Shown: piece by piece, positions 30,079 through 36,901 of the stretch | How the letters are laid out: each line of letters begins with the position of its first letter | Numbering within the stretch: position 1 is the stretch's first letter | NCBI GenBank assembly: GCA_015272205.1 | Contig: JACYMB010000083.1 | Location: 1 to 38,080, forward strand | Source of the DNA: Synechococcales cyanobacterium T60_A2020_003 | Lineage (GTDB): Bacteria > Cyanobacteriota > Cyanobacteriia > RECH01 | DNA: 38,080 nucleotides | Direction: 5' to 3' | Notes under the pieces: model-generated | What the model was told of the DNA's origin: nothing | Databases searched by the model: none | The model's input: only the letters and a program-made list of their open reading frames with translations | Translations under genes and position numbers: made by a program

Positions 30079-30294
30079 ATGGCAGTTGAAAAAGTAAACT
30101 CCTCCTCTAGCCTTGCTGAAGTTGTTGACCGCATCCTCGACAAAGGTATCGTTGTTGATGCATGGGTTCGTGTTTCATTGGTTGGTATCGAACTACTGGC
30201 TATTGAGGCTCGCGTTGTGATTGCGTCCGTAGAAACCTACTTGAAGTATGCAGAAGCTGTAGGTCTGACTGCTCAGGCTGCTGTTCCTGCATAG
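30079..30294 (+). CDS. gvpA: Gas vesicle structural protein GvpA
   Basis: A 71-residue protein nearly identical in pattern to other cyanobacterial GvpA: '[20 protein letters not shown]', '[20 protein letters not shown]', '[16 protein letters not shown]'. GvpA is the small hydrophobic protein that forms the ribs of the gas vesicle wall. There is only one copy in this window, whereas some species carry several. AGGTG lies upstream of the ATG. Two hairpins follow the stop and probably reduce read-through into gvpC, matching the need for much more GvpA than GvpC. Confidence 0.98.
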
Positions 30295-30426: not shown

Positions 30427-31521
30427 ATGAGTTCCCTCAGAGATTCGTGGCAGGCACTACGAGTCCAGCGCCAGCAAGAATTTAATCAACGGCAAATCGA
30501 GGTGCAGGAACTGCTCAGTGGGTTCTCAGCTGAACGGCAAGCTCAGGCTGCGCAATTACGTAGCGAACTCAGCCAATTTCAGCAAGAAATTAGAACCGCC
30601 ACTCAACTGTTTCTTGCATCTGCTAGTCAACAGCGCCAAATTCAGGCGCAGCAACTGTTTCAAGAGCTAGAGAGCTATACCCGCGTCATTAAAGCGGAAA
30701 CGGCTGAGTTTTTGTCTCAAGTGACGAGCGATCGCACCCTAATGGCACAACAGCTTACCCGCGATCTGCAAGGGTTTCGTCGTGAGTTATCCACCCTTGT
30801 GGCAGCCCTCATTCAGGCGTACACCGAAAAGCGTCATCAGGACGAAATCCAAATTATGCAAGAGCTAGCCACCTACGTCGAAGATCTCAAAGCCGACGTC
30901 CAGGTTTACCTGTCGGAATTGGGAGCCATGCGCGAACGACGGGCTGAGCAGGTTTGGAGCGAACTTCAGCAGAGCCATGACAAGCGCTTGGCTGAAGTAG
31001 AGGCGCTGTTTCGCGACTTGGCAGACTTTCGGGCAGAGCTTACGTCCTATTGCACCAGCATCCGACAAAGCGTTTGGGGAAACGAAGGCGTTCCCGTTGC
31101 TGCCCCAAAGCCAACGATGCAGCTTAAAAGACCCGCCGCCAAACCTGCATCTTCTAACAAGGTACAGGCTAAAGCAAAGGCGAAGGTAGCCCCTGCGCCC
31201 AAAGCCGTGCCTCCAGCTAAACCAGCGGCGATCGCCCCCCCTCCTGCTATAGAAGCACCCGCTCCAGTTCCAGCCCCAGTCGCACCCAAGGTTGATGAGA
31301 CAGCATCTAACTCCGATGCCCATCATCACCCCCTGGCTCAACTGGAAGCCGAAATTTGTGAGCATATCCGCAAAATGCAGGGAGCTAGACTCCCCGAAAT
31401 CGAGACAGCCTTGGGAATTAACCGCTTCCAAGCCGTTGATGCACTACGTGCGTTGATCAAGGAAGGTCTGGTAACTCAACGCGATCGCGTCTACTTGATT
31501 CAAGAGGAAGTAAGCCTGTGA
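30427..31521 (+). CDS. gvpC: Gas vesicle outer protein GvpC with C-terminal winged-helix domain
   Basis: A 364-residue protein. After a 43-residue N-terminal part come four clean 33-residue repeats (44-76, 77-109, 110-142, 143-175) and a partial one, with the alternating 'ELxxFxxEI...FL' and 'R..QAQQ' pattern of GvpC helices that bind across GvpA ribs and stiffen the vesicle. Residues about 225-285 are a basic Ala/Pro/Lys linker ('[19 protein letters not shown]'). The last 60 residues form an extra domain ('[20 protein letters not shown]', then '[13 protein letters not shown]') with winged-helix character, also present in the adjacent GvpN. Classical Anabaena GvpC is about 190 residues and lacks this. 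AGGAGG precedes the ATG. The stop overlaps the gvpN start. Confidence 0.93.
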
Positions 31522-33380
31522 CCACTGTTCTCCATGCCCGACCTCGCGGTTTCGTAAGCACCCCCGCTATCGAGCGCATCATTGCCCGCGCATTGCGCTA
31601 TCTCCAGTCAGGATTCCCGGTTCACCTCCGGGGGGCTGCCGGAACTGGAAAAACGACTTTGGCACTCCATTTAGCCGACCTACTGAGTCGTCCCATCATG
31701 CTGTTGTTCGGAGATGACGAGTTTAAGTCTACCGACCTGATTGGCAACCAGTCGGGTTACACCCGCAAGAAAGTTGTGGATAACTTTATTCACAGCGTCG
31801 TCAAGATGGAAGATGAGCTTCGGCATAACTGGGTCGATTCCCGTTTGACCCTCGCCTGCCGCGAAGGATTCACCCTGGTCTATGACGAATTTAACCGCTC
31901 ACGCCCAGAAGTGAATAATGTACTCCTGTCCGCATTGGAAGAGAAGTTGCTGGTGTTGCCACCCAGCAGCAACCGCAACGAGTACATTCGGGTTAATCCG
32001 CATTTCCGTGCCATCTTCACCTCGAACCCAGAGGAGTATTGTGGGGTTCATGCCACTCAGGATGCCTTGTTGGATCGATTAATCACCATCAACATTCCTG
32101 AACCGGATGAGCTAACCCAGCAGGAAATCATTGCCCAGAAAGTCGGTATCGATCGCCAGAGTGCAGTAACGATTGTGCAACTGGTGCGTCGGTTCCGCGT
32201 TAAGGCCAATCTGGAAAACTCGTCTGGATTGCGGTCGTGTTTAATGATTTCCAAAATTTGTCATGAGCATGGCATTATTGCGGGCACGGAGAACGCCGAA
32301 TTTCGAGATCTCTGCCAGGATATTTTGCTCTCTCGATCGGGGCTGCCCGTTCGTCAGGCGACCCAACTGATTTGGGAAACCTTTAATGAACTGGTTGGGG
32401 TTAGCTTTACGCCTCAAGAGCCTACGGATCACCTATTCGATCCCTATAGACCACCGGTGGATGGCGATCTTGACGATTCCGCAGAAGCCGATGCCCTACT
32501 GGCAGAAGTCCAGGCGCAGGCTGCTCGTTCTTTAGTTCTAGATACACCAGAACCCCAGGTAAATGCCCCAGCAGAAACAAATCAGCCGGAAATTATCGAT
32601 GAACTGACCGAAGCTGTCATCGATCTTGACGAAGCTCAGGGGGGTGACGAGCACATTGAAGACGTTGCCGAACTTGAAAATTCTGATGAAATTGCCGATG
32701 TAGCAGCGACAGAACTCGCTGAAGCTGACGAGGACGAAGCTGGAATTGTTGATGCGTTAGCAGCAGACAGTCTTGATGATCAGGAACCTGGGGATCAGGA
32801 ACTCGATGTAGAGGCAGAAGCTGAAGATCTCGAAATTGCTGAGCCCACTCCTACCGAAGCGGCGGATGTAGAGGCGATCGCCCCTTCTGAAGAATCTGTG
32901 ATTGCTGAAGAGGATACCCTTGTTGTGGAACCAACTGTTTTGGTTGAATCAGCCATCGCTGTTGACGACGTTAAAGCGGACGTAACAGCGGCAGAGCTTG
33001 AGTCACCGGAACTTGAAGCCTTGGATGCTGACTCTGGCGAAGCGGAGGATGACTTCGACGCCGAAGCGAACGTGACAGAAACAGTTTCCAATGACCTCGA
33101 TGATGAGGCGATCGCCCTTGCTGCTGCACCGAGTACAATTGATCCAGTAATCGAAGAGTTTTCGGAAGTGCCCTTTGAGCGAGATGTGTACGCCTACCTA
33201 CAGACCACAGAAGAAGCTCGTCCATCGGAAATTGAAGTTGCGCTAAGCATCAACCGTTTCCAGTCGATTAATGCGCTGCGTTCTTTGGTCGATAAAGGTC
33301 TCATTCTGATCCAATCCAGTCCCGACAAGCCCTCAACCTATCGTTTGAATACCTCTGTCCCGGCTACTGCCTCAGTGTGA
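31518..33380 (+). CDS. gvpN: Gas vesicle AAA+ ATPase GvpN with acidic linker and winged-helix tail
   Basis: A 620-residue protein, far longer than usual GvpN (about 300-400). Residues 1-310 are the MoxR-type AAA+ ATPase: start '[20 protein letters not shown]', Walker A GAAGTGKT at 39-46, '[20 protein letters not shown]', Walker B-like '[14 protein letters not shown]', sensor '[10 protein letters not shown]'. Residues about 315-550 are an acidic Asp/Glu/Ala-rich linker with no visible fold. Residues about 551-615 are a winged-helix-like domain ('[20 protein letters not shown]') closely similar to the GvpC C-terminus. The start is GTG at 31518, overlapping the gvpC stop by 4 bases, so translation is coupled. 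GvpN is needed for vesicle growth and, in haloarchaea, contacts GvpC (from memory). Confidence 0.95.
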
Positions 33381-33400: not shown

Positions 33401-33754
33401 ATGACAACCACCATGCCCACCCGCTCATCCCCCCAATCCCATCGCACGATCGCAACGGCCACGCAAGGATCAACCCTGGCTGATGTCTTAGAGCGCGTTC
33501 TCGATAAAGGGATTGTGATTGCGGGTGACATTTCTGTTTCCGTTGGTTCCACTGAACTGCTCAGCATCCGCATCCGTCTCCTCATTTCCTCGGTTGATAA
33601 GGCTAAGGAAATTGGCATTAACTGGTGGGAGAGCGATCCGTATCTGAGTGGTCAAGCCCAGCAGCTCTTACAGGCGAATCAGCAACTTCAAGCCCGTATC
33701 GAAAGCTTAGAAACCGAGCTACGCGCTTTAAGGGCTGCGCCGGAGACTCCCTAG
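33401..33754 (+). CDS. gvpJ: Gas vesicle minor protein GvpJ
   Basis: A 117-residue GvpA-family protein: a Thr/Ser-rich N-terminus, a GvpA-like core ('LADVLERVLDKGIVIAGDIS', 'VGSTELLSIRIRLLISSVDK') and a C-terminal coiled coil ('QQLLQANQQLQARIESLETE') that GvpA lacks. This marks it as GvpJ, a minor component thought to act at nucleation or at the vesicle tips. It starts 20 bases after gvpN. A 128-base gap to the next small gene contains the first copy of a 12-base leader repeat. Confidence 0.93.
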   Translation: MTTTMPTRSSPQSHRTIATATQGSTLADVLERVLDKGIVIAGDISVSVGSTELLSIRIRLLISSVDKAKEIGINWWESDPYLSGQAQQLLQANQQLQARIESLETELRALRAAPETP

Positions 33755-34083: not shown

Positions 34084-34113
34084 GATTAGTAGCGCTTACC
34101 CCTTGGATCTCAT

Positions 34114-34125
34114 CACTATAGAGAC
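34114..34125 (+). repeat. Leader repeat, copy 2
   Basis: CACTATAGAGAC, identical to 33857-33868. It ends 13 bases before the ATG at 34139. Confidence 0.6.
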
Positions 34126-34138
34126 ATACAGCGTTTAT

Positions 34139-34393
34139 ATGAACACTGTACCTATGGAGCAATTCGATCAACCCGATCAACCTAAACCGATGAACCAAGT
34201 GCAACGTCAACCCAAACCCTATCTTGATTCAGAGCACTATCGACAAATGCTAGTGCGCGACGGCGAGCGACGTTTTCAGGAATGGCACACCGCATTTCTG
34301 GAACACCAAAAAACGTTTCGTAATGCTACACAGGAGGGCGTTGGCAAAGCGTCTTTGCGAGACGCAGCGTCCCAAGACAATCACCAAGTGTAG
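34139..34393 (+). CDS. Second small protein in the gvp cluster
   Basis: An 84-residue hydrophilic protein ('MNTVPMEQFDQPDQPKPMNQ', 'YLDSEHYRQMLVRDGERRFQ', 'EWHTAFLEHQKTFRN'). ATG 34139 or 34154 could start it; neither has a strong ribosome binding site, but the 12-base leader repeat sits 13 bases before the first. The last 20 codons ('EGVGKASLRDAASQD') are encoded by a sequence with a perfect hairpin that resembles a dispersed cyanobacterial repeat, so the original C-terminus may have been replaced by repeat insertion. It ends 7 bases before gvpK. Possibly gvpX or an undescribed accessory gene. Confidence 0.55.
   Translation: MNTVPMEQFDQPDQPKPMNQVQRQPKPYLDSEHYRQMLVRDGERRFQEWHTAFLEHQKTFRNATQEGVGKASLRDAASQDNHQV
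34340..34372 (+). repeat. Hairpin repeat inserted in the 3' end of a small gvp gene
   Basis: GCGTCT-TTGCG-AGACGC (34349-34365) is a perfect 6-pair hairpin inside GCGTTGGCAAAGC...GACGCAGCG. The word pattern 'GCGTTGGC-AAGC-TCT...AGACGC' recalls short dispersed repeats of Nostoc-type genomes (from memory). It lies inside the coding frame. Confidence 0.45.
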
Positions 34394-34400
34394 GGTGATC

Positions 34401-34886
34401 ATGATTCAACCGGATAATGCGTCCTCAGACATCCCATCCGATACCATCGATTTAAACTCTGCACTCTCCGCACCGTCAAAGCCAAATTCAGGACTTGCCC
34501 CTCTTTTGCTGACGGTCGTTGAGTTGGTGCGGCAATTGATGGAAGCGCAGATCATTCGACGGATGGATCAGGGTGAGCTAACCGAGGCTGATTTGGAACG
34601 GGCAGCGGAAAGCCTCCGCAAACTTGAGGAGCAAGTTATCCAGCTTTGCGAGATTTTTGAGATTGATCCCGCCGATCTCAACATTGATTTAGGCGACATC
34701 GGAACATTGCTGCCCAGAACAGGGTACTACCCTGGCGAAACTTCAACCAACCCGTCAATTCTAGAACTCCTGGATCGCCTGCTCAATGTTGGTGTCGTCC
34801 TCGAAGGCGATGTCGAACTGGGCCTTGCACAGCTTAACTTGATCCATGCGAAGTTACGCCTAGTTCTCACCTCGAAACCCGTTTGA
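34401..34886 (+). CDS. gvpK: Gas vesicle protein GvpK
   Basis: A 161-residue protein from the ATG at 34401. The core shows 'LAPLLLTVVELVRQLMEAQI', 'IRRMDQGELTEADLERAAES', 'LEEQVIQLCEIFEIDPADLN' and 'DLGDIGTLLP', typical of GvpK. It then ends with a segment like the GvpA core ('SILELLDRLLNVGVVLEGDV', 'ELGLAQLNLIHAKLRLVLTS'), so a GvpA-type helix-beta unit is attached at the C-terminus. GvpK is an assembly or nucleation component. A frame to 34323 exists but overlaps the upstream gene. It is followed by a 176-base spacer with an inverted repeat. Confidence 0.93.
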   Translation: MIQPDNASSDIPSDTIDLNSALSAPSKPNSGLAPLLLTVVELVRQLMEAQIIRRMDQGELTEADLERAAESLRKLEEQVIQLCEIFEIDPADLNIDLGDIGTLLPRTGYYPGETSTNPSILELLDRLLNVGVVLEGDVELGLAQLNLIHAKLRLVLTSKPV

Positions 34887-35062: not shown

Positions 35063-35806
35063 ATGTCAAACGGTCTGTACCTATACGGCATTTTCCCAAC
35101 CCCTGGCCCCACCCATCTGGAAATTGAAGGGCTAGATAAGCAGCCAGTGAAGTCGCACCAGCTTGATCAGTTTGTTTTTCTCTACTCTGATGCTCAGCAG
35201 GATCGCTATCTGGCAAGCCGCCGCAACTTACTAGGACATGAACGGGTTCTAGAACATGCGATGGAGCACGGATTTCATACTCTGCTCCCCCTGCAATTTG
35301 GTCTCATTATTGATGATTGGGATATGGTGCGGGAGCAGCTTATTACGCCCCAGGGCGAAAAACTCAGCACGTTGCTTCATCACTTGGAAGGACAACGAGA
35401 AGTAGGTGTGAAACTGTTTTGGGAAACGGAGAAAGAGCTAGAAGCCTTGATGGCTGAAAACGATACCTTGCGGGCGGAGCGCGATCGCCTTGAAGGACGC
35501 ACCCTCAGCATGGATGAGATTGTCCGGATTGGGCAGGCTATAGAACAGGCCATGGAGGATCGTAAAGACGCTATTATCCAAACCTTTCAAACCACGCTCA
35601 ATCCGCTAGCCACCAAGGTCGTTGAAAATGATCCGCTAACGGAGACCATGATTTATAATGCGGCCTATTTGATTTCGTGGGATGCGGAGTCGGCGTTTAG
35701 CGAAAAGGTAGAACACCTCGATCACCATTTTGAAAATCGCTTGCGGATTCGCTACAACAACTTCACAGCTCCGTTTAACTTTGCCCAATTAGAAGCCTTT
35801 GCCTAG
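35063..35806 (+). CDS. gvpF: Gas vesicle protein GvpF/GvpL
   Basis: A 247-residue GvpF/L-family protein: 'GLYLYGIFPTPGP' at the N-terminus, 'HERVLEHAMEHGFHTLLPLQ', 'FGLIIDDWD', 'VGVKLFWETEKELEALMAEN', and the C-terminal beta/alpha domain 'ENRLRIRYNNFTAPFNFAQL'. GvpF binds GvpA and is thought to help deliver it to the growing vesicle. The ATG at 35063 gives the family N-terminus. Only one GvpF/L gene is present in the window; gvpW, a second family member in other cyanobacteria, is absent here. gvpG follows after 59 bases. Confidence 0.93.
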   Translation: MSNGLYLYGIFPTPGPTHLEIEGLDKQPVKSHQLDQFVFLYSDAQQDRYLASRRNLLGHERVLEHAMEHGFHTLLPLQFGLIIDDWDMVREQLITPQGEKLSTLLHHLEGQREVGVKLFWETEKELEALMAENDTLRAERDRLEGRTLSMDEIVRIGQAIEQAMEDRKDAIIQTFQTTLNPLATKVVENDPLTETMIYNAAYLISWDAESAFSEKVEHLDHHFENRLRIRYNNFTAPFNFAQLEAFA

Positions 35807-35865: not shown

Positions 35866-36108
35866 ATGTTTCTTGATCTCCTCTTTGCCCCGATCACCGC
35901 TCCCGTTAACGGTCTTGCCTGGATTGGAAATAAAATTCTAGAACATGCAGGTTCGGATCTGGACGAGAAAGAATCCTTGCAAAAACAGCTCCTCGCCCTG
36001 CAACTCGCCTTTGATATGGGCGATATCTCCGAAGAAGAATTCGAGGAGCAGGAAGAGGAGCTATTGCTGGCTATCGATGCACTCACCTATCCGCCAGAAG
36101 AAGGATAA
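35866..36108 (+). CDS. gvpG: Gas vesicle protein GvpG
   Basis: An 80-residue protein: 'MFLDLLFAPITAPVNGLAWI' followed by a helical acidic part ('LQKQLLALQLAFDMGDISEE', 'EFEEQEEELLLAIDAL'). This is the normal GvpG pattern; GvpG is a minor or assembly factor that contacts other Gvp proteins. It is the last recognisable gas vesicle gene on the plus strand. Only 34 bases separate it from the convergent cyclophilin gene, and no clear terminator lies between, so read-through antisense to the cyclophilin is possible. Confidence 0.95.
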   Translation: MFLDLLFAPITAPVNGLAWIGNKILEHAGSDLDEKESLQKQLLALQLAFDMGDISEEEFEEQEEELLLAIDALTYPPEEG

Positions 36109-36142
36109 CTCGGAGTGTGATGGTTTCCGTAGTTTTGGAACT

Positions 36143-36901
36143 CTAGGGGGTTTTCAGGTTTTCTAGACCTGAAATAACCCGTGCGGATTCGATGCGATCG
36201 CCTTGCTGAATCGCGTCCACAACCTCCATACCCTCAGTTACGTACCCCAAAACGGCGTAGTTGCCATCTAAAAAGCCTAAATCCGACAACGCAAAGTAAA
36301 ACTGTGATGATGCTGAATCTGGCATTTGCGATCGCGCCATCGCAACCGCACCCCGCTGATGCATCAACACTGGGGGACGGTCAACCTTCGCGTCTTCCAA
36401 CGTGCGGCTGTAAACAATTTCACTATTACTCCCTTGGGGCTTAATTTCTAGGGGAATGTAGCGAGGGAGTCCTGTTTCTGGATCAACATAGCTTCCAGTG
36501 CCGTACATCTGAGGCGGAACATTGGGATCCTTCGTTTGCGGATCGCCACCCTGCACTACAAAGGGTTCTGGATCTCTGACGACTCGATGAAAGGCTGTAC
36601 CGTCATATACGCCCTTCTGCACCAAATCGACAAAATTACCAGCGGTAATCGGCGCATTGGTGCCATCGACCTCAATCCGAATTGGGCTGCCGTTAACGAT
36701 CAGTTCAACCGTAGCCGTGCCATCCAGACGAGGCAGCGAACTTGCCATGGGAGCGTTGACAATGCTGGTACTTTGAGGTGTTGATGTCGCAGATGCCGTT
36801 TCTGCGGCTTCTTGAGTGGCGCAAGAGATAAGGGCGATCGCCAATACGAGGAACAACCCCACCGAAAACAGGGGTTTAAGAATAGGTTTGATCACGTTCA
36901 T
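36143..36901 (-). CDS. Cyclophilin-type peptidyl-prolyl isomerase lipoprotein
   Basis: A 252-residue protein. The N-terminus is a lipoprotein signal ('LFLVLAIALISCATQ', with the modified Cys in LISC). The cyclophilin domain follows from about residue 60: 'GTNAPITAGNFVDLVQKGVY', 'GTAFHRVVRDPEPFVVQGGD', 'GAVAMARSQMPDSASSQFYF', 'LDGNYAVLGYVTEGMEVV'. It should catalyse proline cis-trans isomerisation on the outer side of the inner membrane or in the thylakoid lumen. Its start is 34 bases after the ycf4 stop, so the two are probably one operon. A hairpin (GGGTTTTCAGGT / ACCTGAAATAACCC, 36148-36180) lies at its 3' end just before the stop codon. Confidence 0.93.
   Translation of the reverse strand: MNVIKPILKPLFSVGLFLVLAIALISCATQEAAETASATSTPQSTSIVNAPMASSLPRLDGTATVELIVNGSPIRIEVDGTNAPITAGNFVDLVQKGVYDGTAFHRVVRDPEPFVVQGGDPQTKDPNVPPQMYGTGSYVDPETGLPRYIPLEIKPQGSNSEIVYSRTLEDAKVDRPPVLMHQRGAVAMARSQMPDSASSQFYFALSDLGFLDGNYAVLGYVTEGMEVVDAIQQGDRIESARVISGLENLKTP

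What the first reader, a model, noticed from the sequence alone, without database searches (positions are those of the whole stretch)
31335..33360. GvpC and GvpN share the same extra C-terminal winged-helix-like domain
The C-terminal ~60 residues of GvpC (encoded near 31335-31518) and of GvpN (near 33170-33360) align without gaps over a 33-residue core with 18 identities, including EIE, AL, INRFQ and ALR. Classical GvpC and GvpN lack such a domain as far as I recall. The two neighbouring genes encode proteins known to work on the same structure, so a duplicated domain at both ends suggests a shared binding partner or direct pairing, perhaps bringing the ATPase to the vesicle surface. It could also bind DNA or RNA and couple vesicle state to gene expression. 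This looks like an undescribed variant gas vesicle system.
Basis: partly seen in the sequence, partly recalled or inferred. Interest (0 to 1): 0.75.

Follow-up and report, generated by a model that had tools for sequence, protein, structure and literature searches.

The report
Shared winged-helix tail on GvpC/GvpN
In many cyanobacteria two proteins that build the buoyancy-giving gas vesicles, the outer-coat protein GvpC and the motor-like ATPase GvpN, end in the same small winged-helix domain, which probably docks them together during vesicle growth; part of the likeness was printed in 2017 but not explained.

Summary
GvpC (30427-31521) and GvpN (31518-33380) end in homologous domains of about 60 residues (19/44 identities, no gaps, E 7e-14). 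Family against family the match is 1.2e-30. Both model as canonical winged helices (pLDDT 90 and 92). The tail is not peculiar to this window. In the loci fetched, every convincing match lies on GvpC or GvpN, or on decayed fragments of them. Of 56 cyanobacterial genomes with gvpN among 386 sampled, 19 carry both tails, 7 only the GvpN tail, none only the GvpC tail, 30 neither. Nearer relatives include at least nine clusters with only the GvpC tail, so the pair is associated but not obligate. Pseudogene remnants show repeated loss. Prior art: Pancrace et al. 2017 noted a 28-residue GvpC/GvpN identity in Planktothrix, without naming a fold. Best reading: a docking module for GvpC-GvpC and GvpC-GvpN contacts, as the unrelated GvpC C-terminal domain does in Halobacterium. 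Against exclusive pairing: GvpN tails persist, equally constrained, in species whose GvpC has no tail. For a link: GvpN tails are lost about nine times faster in that clade, but this is one clade. DNA binding is not excluded.

The parts
30079..30294 (+). gvpA, main shell protein (context)
   Evidence: ORF; same protein next to gvpC or gvpN in relatives
30427..31521 (+). gvpC, 364 aa: helical 33-residue-type repeats, Pro/Ala/Lys linker, winged-helix tail
   Evidence: TIGR02641 repeat hit E 1.9e-6, over its cut-off; ORF
31072..31326 (+). GvpC Pro/Ala-rich, slightly basic linker (boundaries approximate)
   Evidence: sequence, composition
31333..31509 (+). GvpC C-terminal winged-helix domain
   Evidence: model pLDDT 90.4
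31518..33380 (+). gvpN, 620 aa, GTG start overlapping the gvpC stop by 4 bases; AAA+ ATPase, acidic linker, winged-helix tail
   Evidence: TIGR02640 E 5e-116; 4-base overlap kept in 20 clusters of the thinned set
31551..32336 (+). GvpN AAA+ (MoxR-like) domain
   Evidence: TIGR02640 match
32388..33158 (+). GvpN hyperacidic linker: about 260 aa, 84 D/E against 3 K/R (boundaries approximate)
33162..33353 (+). GvpN C-terminal winged-helix domain
   Evidence: Pfam TrmB E 1.5e-5; model pLDDT 92.2
33401..33754 (+). gvpJ (context)
   Evidence: matches the corresponding cluster gene in relatives
34323..34886 (+). gvpK (context; start codon uncertain)
35063..35806 (+). gvpF (context)
35866..36108 (+). 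gvpG (context)

Best explanation
GvpC and GvpN of many cyanobacteria each carry, after a flexible linker, a winged-helix domain that goes back to one shared ancestral domain. Shown: homology, fold (by prediction), confinement to these two proteins in the loci examined, purifying selection, repeated loss. Inferred: the domain is a docking module. The GvpC tail associates with GvpC tails on the vesicle surface and with the GvpN tail, so that the AAA+ ring is held on its linker at the coated, growing shell; GvpN could locally displace GvpC-GvpC contacts where new GvpA is inserted. The contact helps but is not obligatory, and the GvpN tail has a further role (self-association or another partner) that keeps it in some species whose GvpC lost its tail.
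For: Same fold on two proteins acting on one structure. Nothing but GvpC/GvpN carries it in the loci fetched, and in the phylum scan all listed matches at E 4e-13 or better lie in frames of gvpN/gvpC clusters. Both tails are kept even where gvpC sits beside gvpA, 5-6 kb from gvpN (L115-L118). Never the GvpC tail alone in 56 gvpN-bearing genomes. GvpN tail lost about nine times faster per branch length in the clade with tail-less GvpC: 8 losses over 2.0 against 5 over 11.8 changes per site, p 1e-4. Purifying selection: dN well below dS in both tails. Precedent: in Halobacterium GvpN binds the C-terminal globular domain of GvpC and not its N-terminal fragment, that domain binds itself, and GvpN pulls down GvpC monomer (PMC9372576). 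Loss of GvpN blocks elongation in several organisms (PMC11445434).
Against: The tails are lost independently: 9 rows GvpC-only and 12 rows GvpN-only of 86. GvpN tails diverge about 3.1 times as fast as the ATPase domain whether GvpC has a tail or not (3.10 against 3.07), so no general relaxation. The loss-rate contrast rests on one clade; independent pairs on supported branches number only two. No co-variation at matching positions beyond one recognition-helix position, and that cannot be upheld once descent is allowed for. The Halobacterium GvpC domain is a zinc-finger type, so the precedent is by analogy.
Confidence: 0.45

Rival explanations
1. Both tails bind one common third partner (another Gvp, a chaperone or another cell factor) rather than each other; this puts the coat and the ATPase in one complex and lets either tail be lost alone.
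For: Independent loss of either tail; unchanged relative constraint on the GvpN tail where GvpC lacks one; same residue in both tails at one recognition-helix position in 53% of genomes against 26% expected.
Against: No candidate partner found; the position signal rests on too few independent changes.
Confidence: 0.25
2. The domains still bind DNA or RNA, so that free GvpC/GvpN feed back on gvp transcription or anchor vesicles to the nucleoid.
For: Fold and nearest profiles are DNA-binding winged helices. The GvpC tail keeps a polar face: invariant R31, D51, R52 and near-invariant Q33, D36, R39 in the recognition helix and wing.
Against: Most of those residues vary in the GvpN tail, where only R31 is invariant. 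Mean net charge is about zero, though a DtxR-like domain (L111) counted by hand is also near zero, so this does not decide. Only weak inverted repeats upstream of gvpA in the window. A surface coat protein is an unlikely regulator.
Confidence: 0.15
3. The two tails share ancestry only: each now serves its own protein (GvpC-GvpC meshing; GvpN ring assembly) without contact between them.
For: The GvpN tail is fast-evolving and often lost, the GvpC tail better conserved; each is found without the other.
Against: Association across the phylum sample and faster GvpN-tail loss where the GvpC tail is missing, though both are open to shared descent.
Confidence: 0.15

Closest known systems
Cyanobacterial GvpC40 of benthic Planktothrix and GvpC of Geitlerinema sp. 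PCC 7407 (Pancrace et al. 2017, PMC5259702)
   Same: Long GvpC whose C-terminal stretch matches GvpN (28 aa, 64% identity); Planktothrix-type loci here carry both tails (L079, L124, L181)
   Different: The paper names no fold, does not follow it beyond these genera and gives no function
Halobacterium GvpC C-terminal globular domain and GvpN (PMC9372576)
   Same: A C-terminal GvpC domain that self-associates and is the GvpN binding site
   Different: Zinc-finger-type domain, not a winged helix; as described there it is a GvpC domain only
Classical cyanobacterial GvpC/GvpN (Anabaena, Microcystis)
   Same: Same repeats, ATPase domain and gene order
   Different: GvpC ends without a tail; GvpN has a diverged tail, a remnant or none
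Winged-helix domains of MarR/TrmB/IclR regulators and Z-alpha domains
   Same: Fold, TM-score about 0.8
   Different: Those sit in nucleic-acid-binding proteins; here the domain sits on a coat protein and an ATPase

Membership tests
GvpN (TIGR02640) | AAA+ domain over the curated cut-off | tested here: met
   386.6 bits against cut-off 266.8
Cyanobacterial GvpC (TIGR02641) | 33-residue repeat over the curated cut-off | tested here: met
   28 bits against 18.8, two stretches
Cyanobacterial GvpC (TIGR02641) | binds the vesicle surface and strengthens it | not testable with these tools
   needs protein or mutant
Winged-helix superfamily | three helices followed by a two-stranded wing | tested here: met
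   predicted models; Foldseek matches
Pfam TrmB (PF01978) | score over gathering cut-off | tested here: not met
   GvpN tail 25.2-25.5 bits against 25.6; GvpC tail 17.2
DNA-binding winged helix | sequence-specific DNA binding | not testable with these tools
   conserved polar recognition face is suggestive only
GvpC-GvpN docking as in Halobacterium | GvpN binds the GvpC C-terminal domain | not testable with these tools
   analogy from PMC9372576
GvpC-GvpN docking as in Halobacterium | the two tails are kept or lost together (a prediction of docking, not part of its definition) | tested here: inconclusive
   associated in the sample, but 9 GvpC-only and 12 GvpN-only rows

The most novel reading that the evidence does not exclude
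A coat protein and its AAA+ remodeller share a duplicated domain used as a homotypic, competitive clasp: GvpC tails hold the coat mesh closed and GvpN, bearing the same clasp, opens it where shell is inserted. This would be a domain-mimicry way of steering an organelle-building ATPase.
Probability: 0.2. Interest if true: 0.75.

Novelty: new variant of a known kind. Interest (0 to 1): 0.5.

Why it matters
How GvpN drives vesicle elongation and how it finds the shell are open questions. A separable 60-residue domain present on both GvpC and GvpN, lost naturally many times, gives a direct way to test GvpN recruitment, and a possible modular handle for engineered gas vesicles used in ultrasound imaging.

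Tried and rejected
Chance similarity: rejected. A tail found elsewhere in the genome: none; weak phylum hits near E 1e-8 and above are other proteins, the one read looking like a DtxR/MntR-type regulator. Local copying between neighbouring genes as sole cause: C and N tails are compatible with two clades (AU p 0.66) and persist where the genes are apart. Oppositely charged linkers as a pairing device: GvpN linkers are acidic, GvpC linkers mildly basic, but they do not correlate (rho 0.15, p 0.36). Matching-position co-variation: no general signal. Net charge as an argument against DNA binding: not decisive. RNA elements at the locus: none.

Full report
Observation. The window holds a cyanobacterial gvp cluster (gvpA-C-N-J-K-F-G). 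GvpC (30427-31521) meets the cyanobacterial GvpC repeat model and GvpN (31518-33380) the GvpN model. Their last 60 or so residues align without gaps, 19/44 identical, E 7e-14; family against family E 1.2e-30. A reversed-sequence control gave no hits. In the window's own genome the two tails find only each other.

Fold. AlphaFold2 with real alignments gives a three-helix, two-strand winged helix for both: GvpC tail pLDDT 90.4, GvpN tail 92.2. Foldseek finds MarR, IclR, CadC, AspA and Z-alpha domains with TM-scores near 0.8 but modest E-values, as expected of a small common fold. Pfam TrmB matches 36 of 51 members below E 0.01, just under the gathering cut-off for the window GvpN tail. So: a winged helix, not assignable to one named family.

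Distribution. I read 80 gvpN loci nearest to the query and further loci from a 386-genome phylum sample. In that sample 56 genomes have gvpN; joining by place gives 19 with both tails, 7 with the GvpN tail only, none with the GvpC tail only, 30 with neither. The nearest-80 set adds ten clusters with only the GvpC tail (L037 is such a case through decay of its GvpN tail). In a thinned set of 86 GvpN sequences: 43 both, 9 GvpC only, 12 GvpN only, 16 neither, 6 undetermined. Some rows are near relatives, so these are counts of sequences, not events. Within the fetched loci no other protein carries the domain.

Loss. Remnants are visible: a GvpC tail after a premature stop in Arthrospira (L068 5696-5881), a frame-broken GvpN tail in L037 (2944-3096), and a decayed GvpN tail downstream of gvpN in L182. 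On the GvpN ATPase tree the GvpN-tail state changes at least 16 times and the GvpC-tail state at least 5. This agrees with the published contrast between long GvpC40 of benthic and short GvpC of planktic Planktothrix (PMC5259702). The ancestral state at the base of the tree is not settled, because short tail-less GvpN also form a long-branched group.

Coupling tests. (a) If the tails only paired with each other, loss of one should free the other. GvpN tails diverge 3.07 times as fast as the ATPase domain in species with tail-less GvpC and 3.10 times in species with both: no general relaxation. The GvpC tail ratio is 1.97 with and 2.26 without a GvpN tail. Sequence pairs overlap, so these are descriptive. 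(b) GvpN-tail losses per branch length are about nine times more frequent in the classical clade with tail-less GvpC (8 over 2.03 against 5 over 11.8, p 1.4e-4). The first length estimate included a stem branch and was redone. This is a single-clade contrast, losses were counted under a no-regain assumption, and the eight rows of short tail-less GvpN and the remote outgroup were left out of it. (c) Same-position agreement within genomes is raised at one recognition-helix position (53% against 26%), but phylogenetically independent pairs are too few to test it. Together: a link is likely, exclusivity is not.

Surface. The GvpC tail has invariant R31, D51, R52 and Y54 (numbering of the 62-column alignment) and near-invariant L20, E24, Q33, D36, R39; the GvpN tail keeps only R31 invariant. 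The GvpC tail is thus the more constrained partner. Whether the conserved polar face meets protein or nucleic acid cannot be told from sequence.

Mechanism. [quoted passage not shown] GvpN is needed for elongation in several organisms (PMC11445434; PMC11223475). I therefore favour a docking and mesh-opening role for the shared cyanobacterial tail, at 0.45, with a common third partner, nucleic-acid binding, and separate roles as rivals. No complex of the two tails could be predicted with the single-chain tool, so direct contact is untested.

Novelty. What is added here: the fold, the spread across filamentous cyanobacteria, the restriction to GvpC and GvpN, the losses, and the tests of coupling. 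The library lacks most subscription papers and preprints, so earlier descriptions may exist.

Noticed in passing
window 32388-33158: GvpN linker is about 260 aa with 84 D/E and 3 K/R (net -81); only one relative read (L033, 391 aa, net -101) exceeds it.
   Followed up: partly
L167, L168, L172, L174, L175 (families f26, f27): GvpC there ends in a different conserved C-terminal segment (e.g. IEQFVVDYVAQLSTNSSLLEVVNDRDTVRDLLAQGANTLKVDPSDILNTLLQM), so GvpC seems to have acquired different tails in different lineages; GvpN in these is short and tail-less.
   Followed up: no
L115-L118: gvpC lies next to gvpA and 5-6 kb from gvpN, both with tails, and gvpG is on the opposite strand upstream of gvpN.
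   Followed up: partly
G262 contigs 29 and 148 (L181, L130): One genome assembly holds two gvp clusters, one with both tails and one of classical type with short GvpC; contamination not excluded.
   Followed up: no
window 34094-34393: Small reading frame between gvpJ and gvpK with a conserved stretch of about 38 residues, also found in L125 (11110-11388) and L166 (6259-6420).
   Followed up: no
window 36128-36219: ARAGORN calls a 92-base tRNA-Arg(TCT) overlapping the 3' end of a cyclophilin-type reading frame on the other strand; Rfam finds no tRNA there, so it is probably a false call.
   Followed up: partly
window 31518-31521: gvpC stop and gvpN GTG start overlap by 4 bases; the same overlap is kept in 20 clusters of the thinned set, suggesting translational coupling.
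   Followed up: partly
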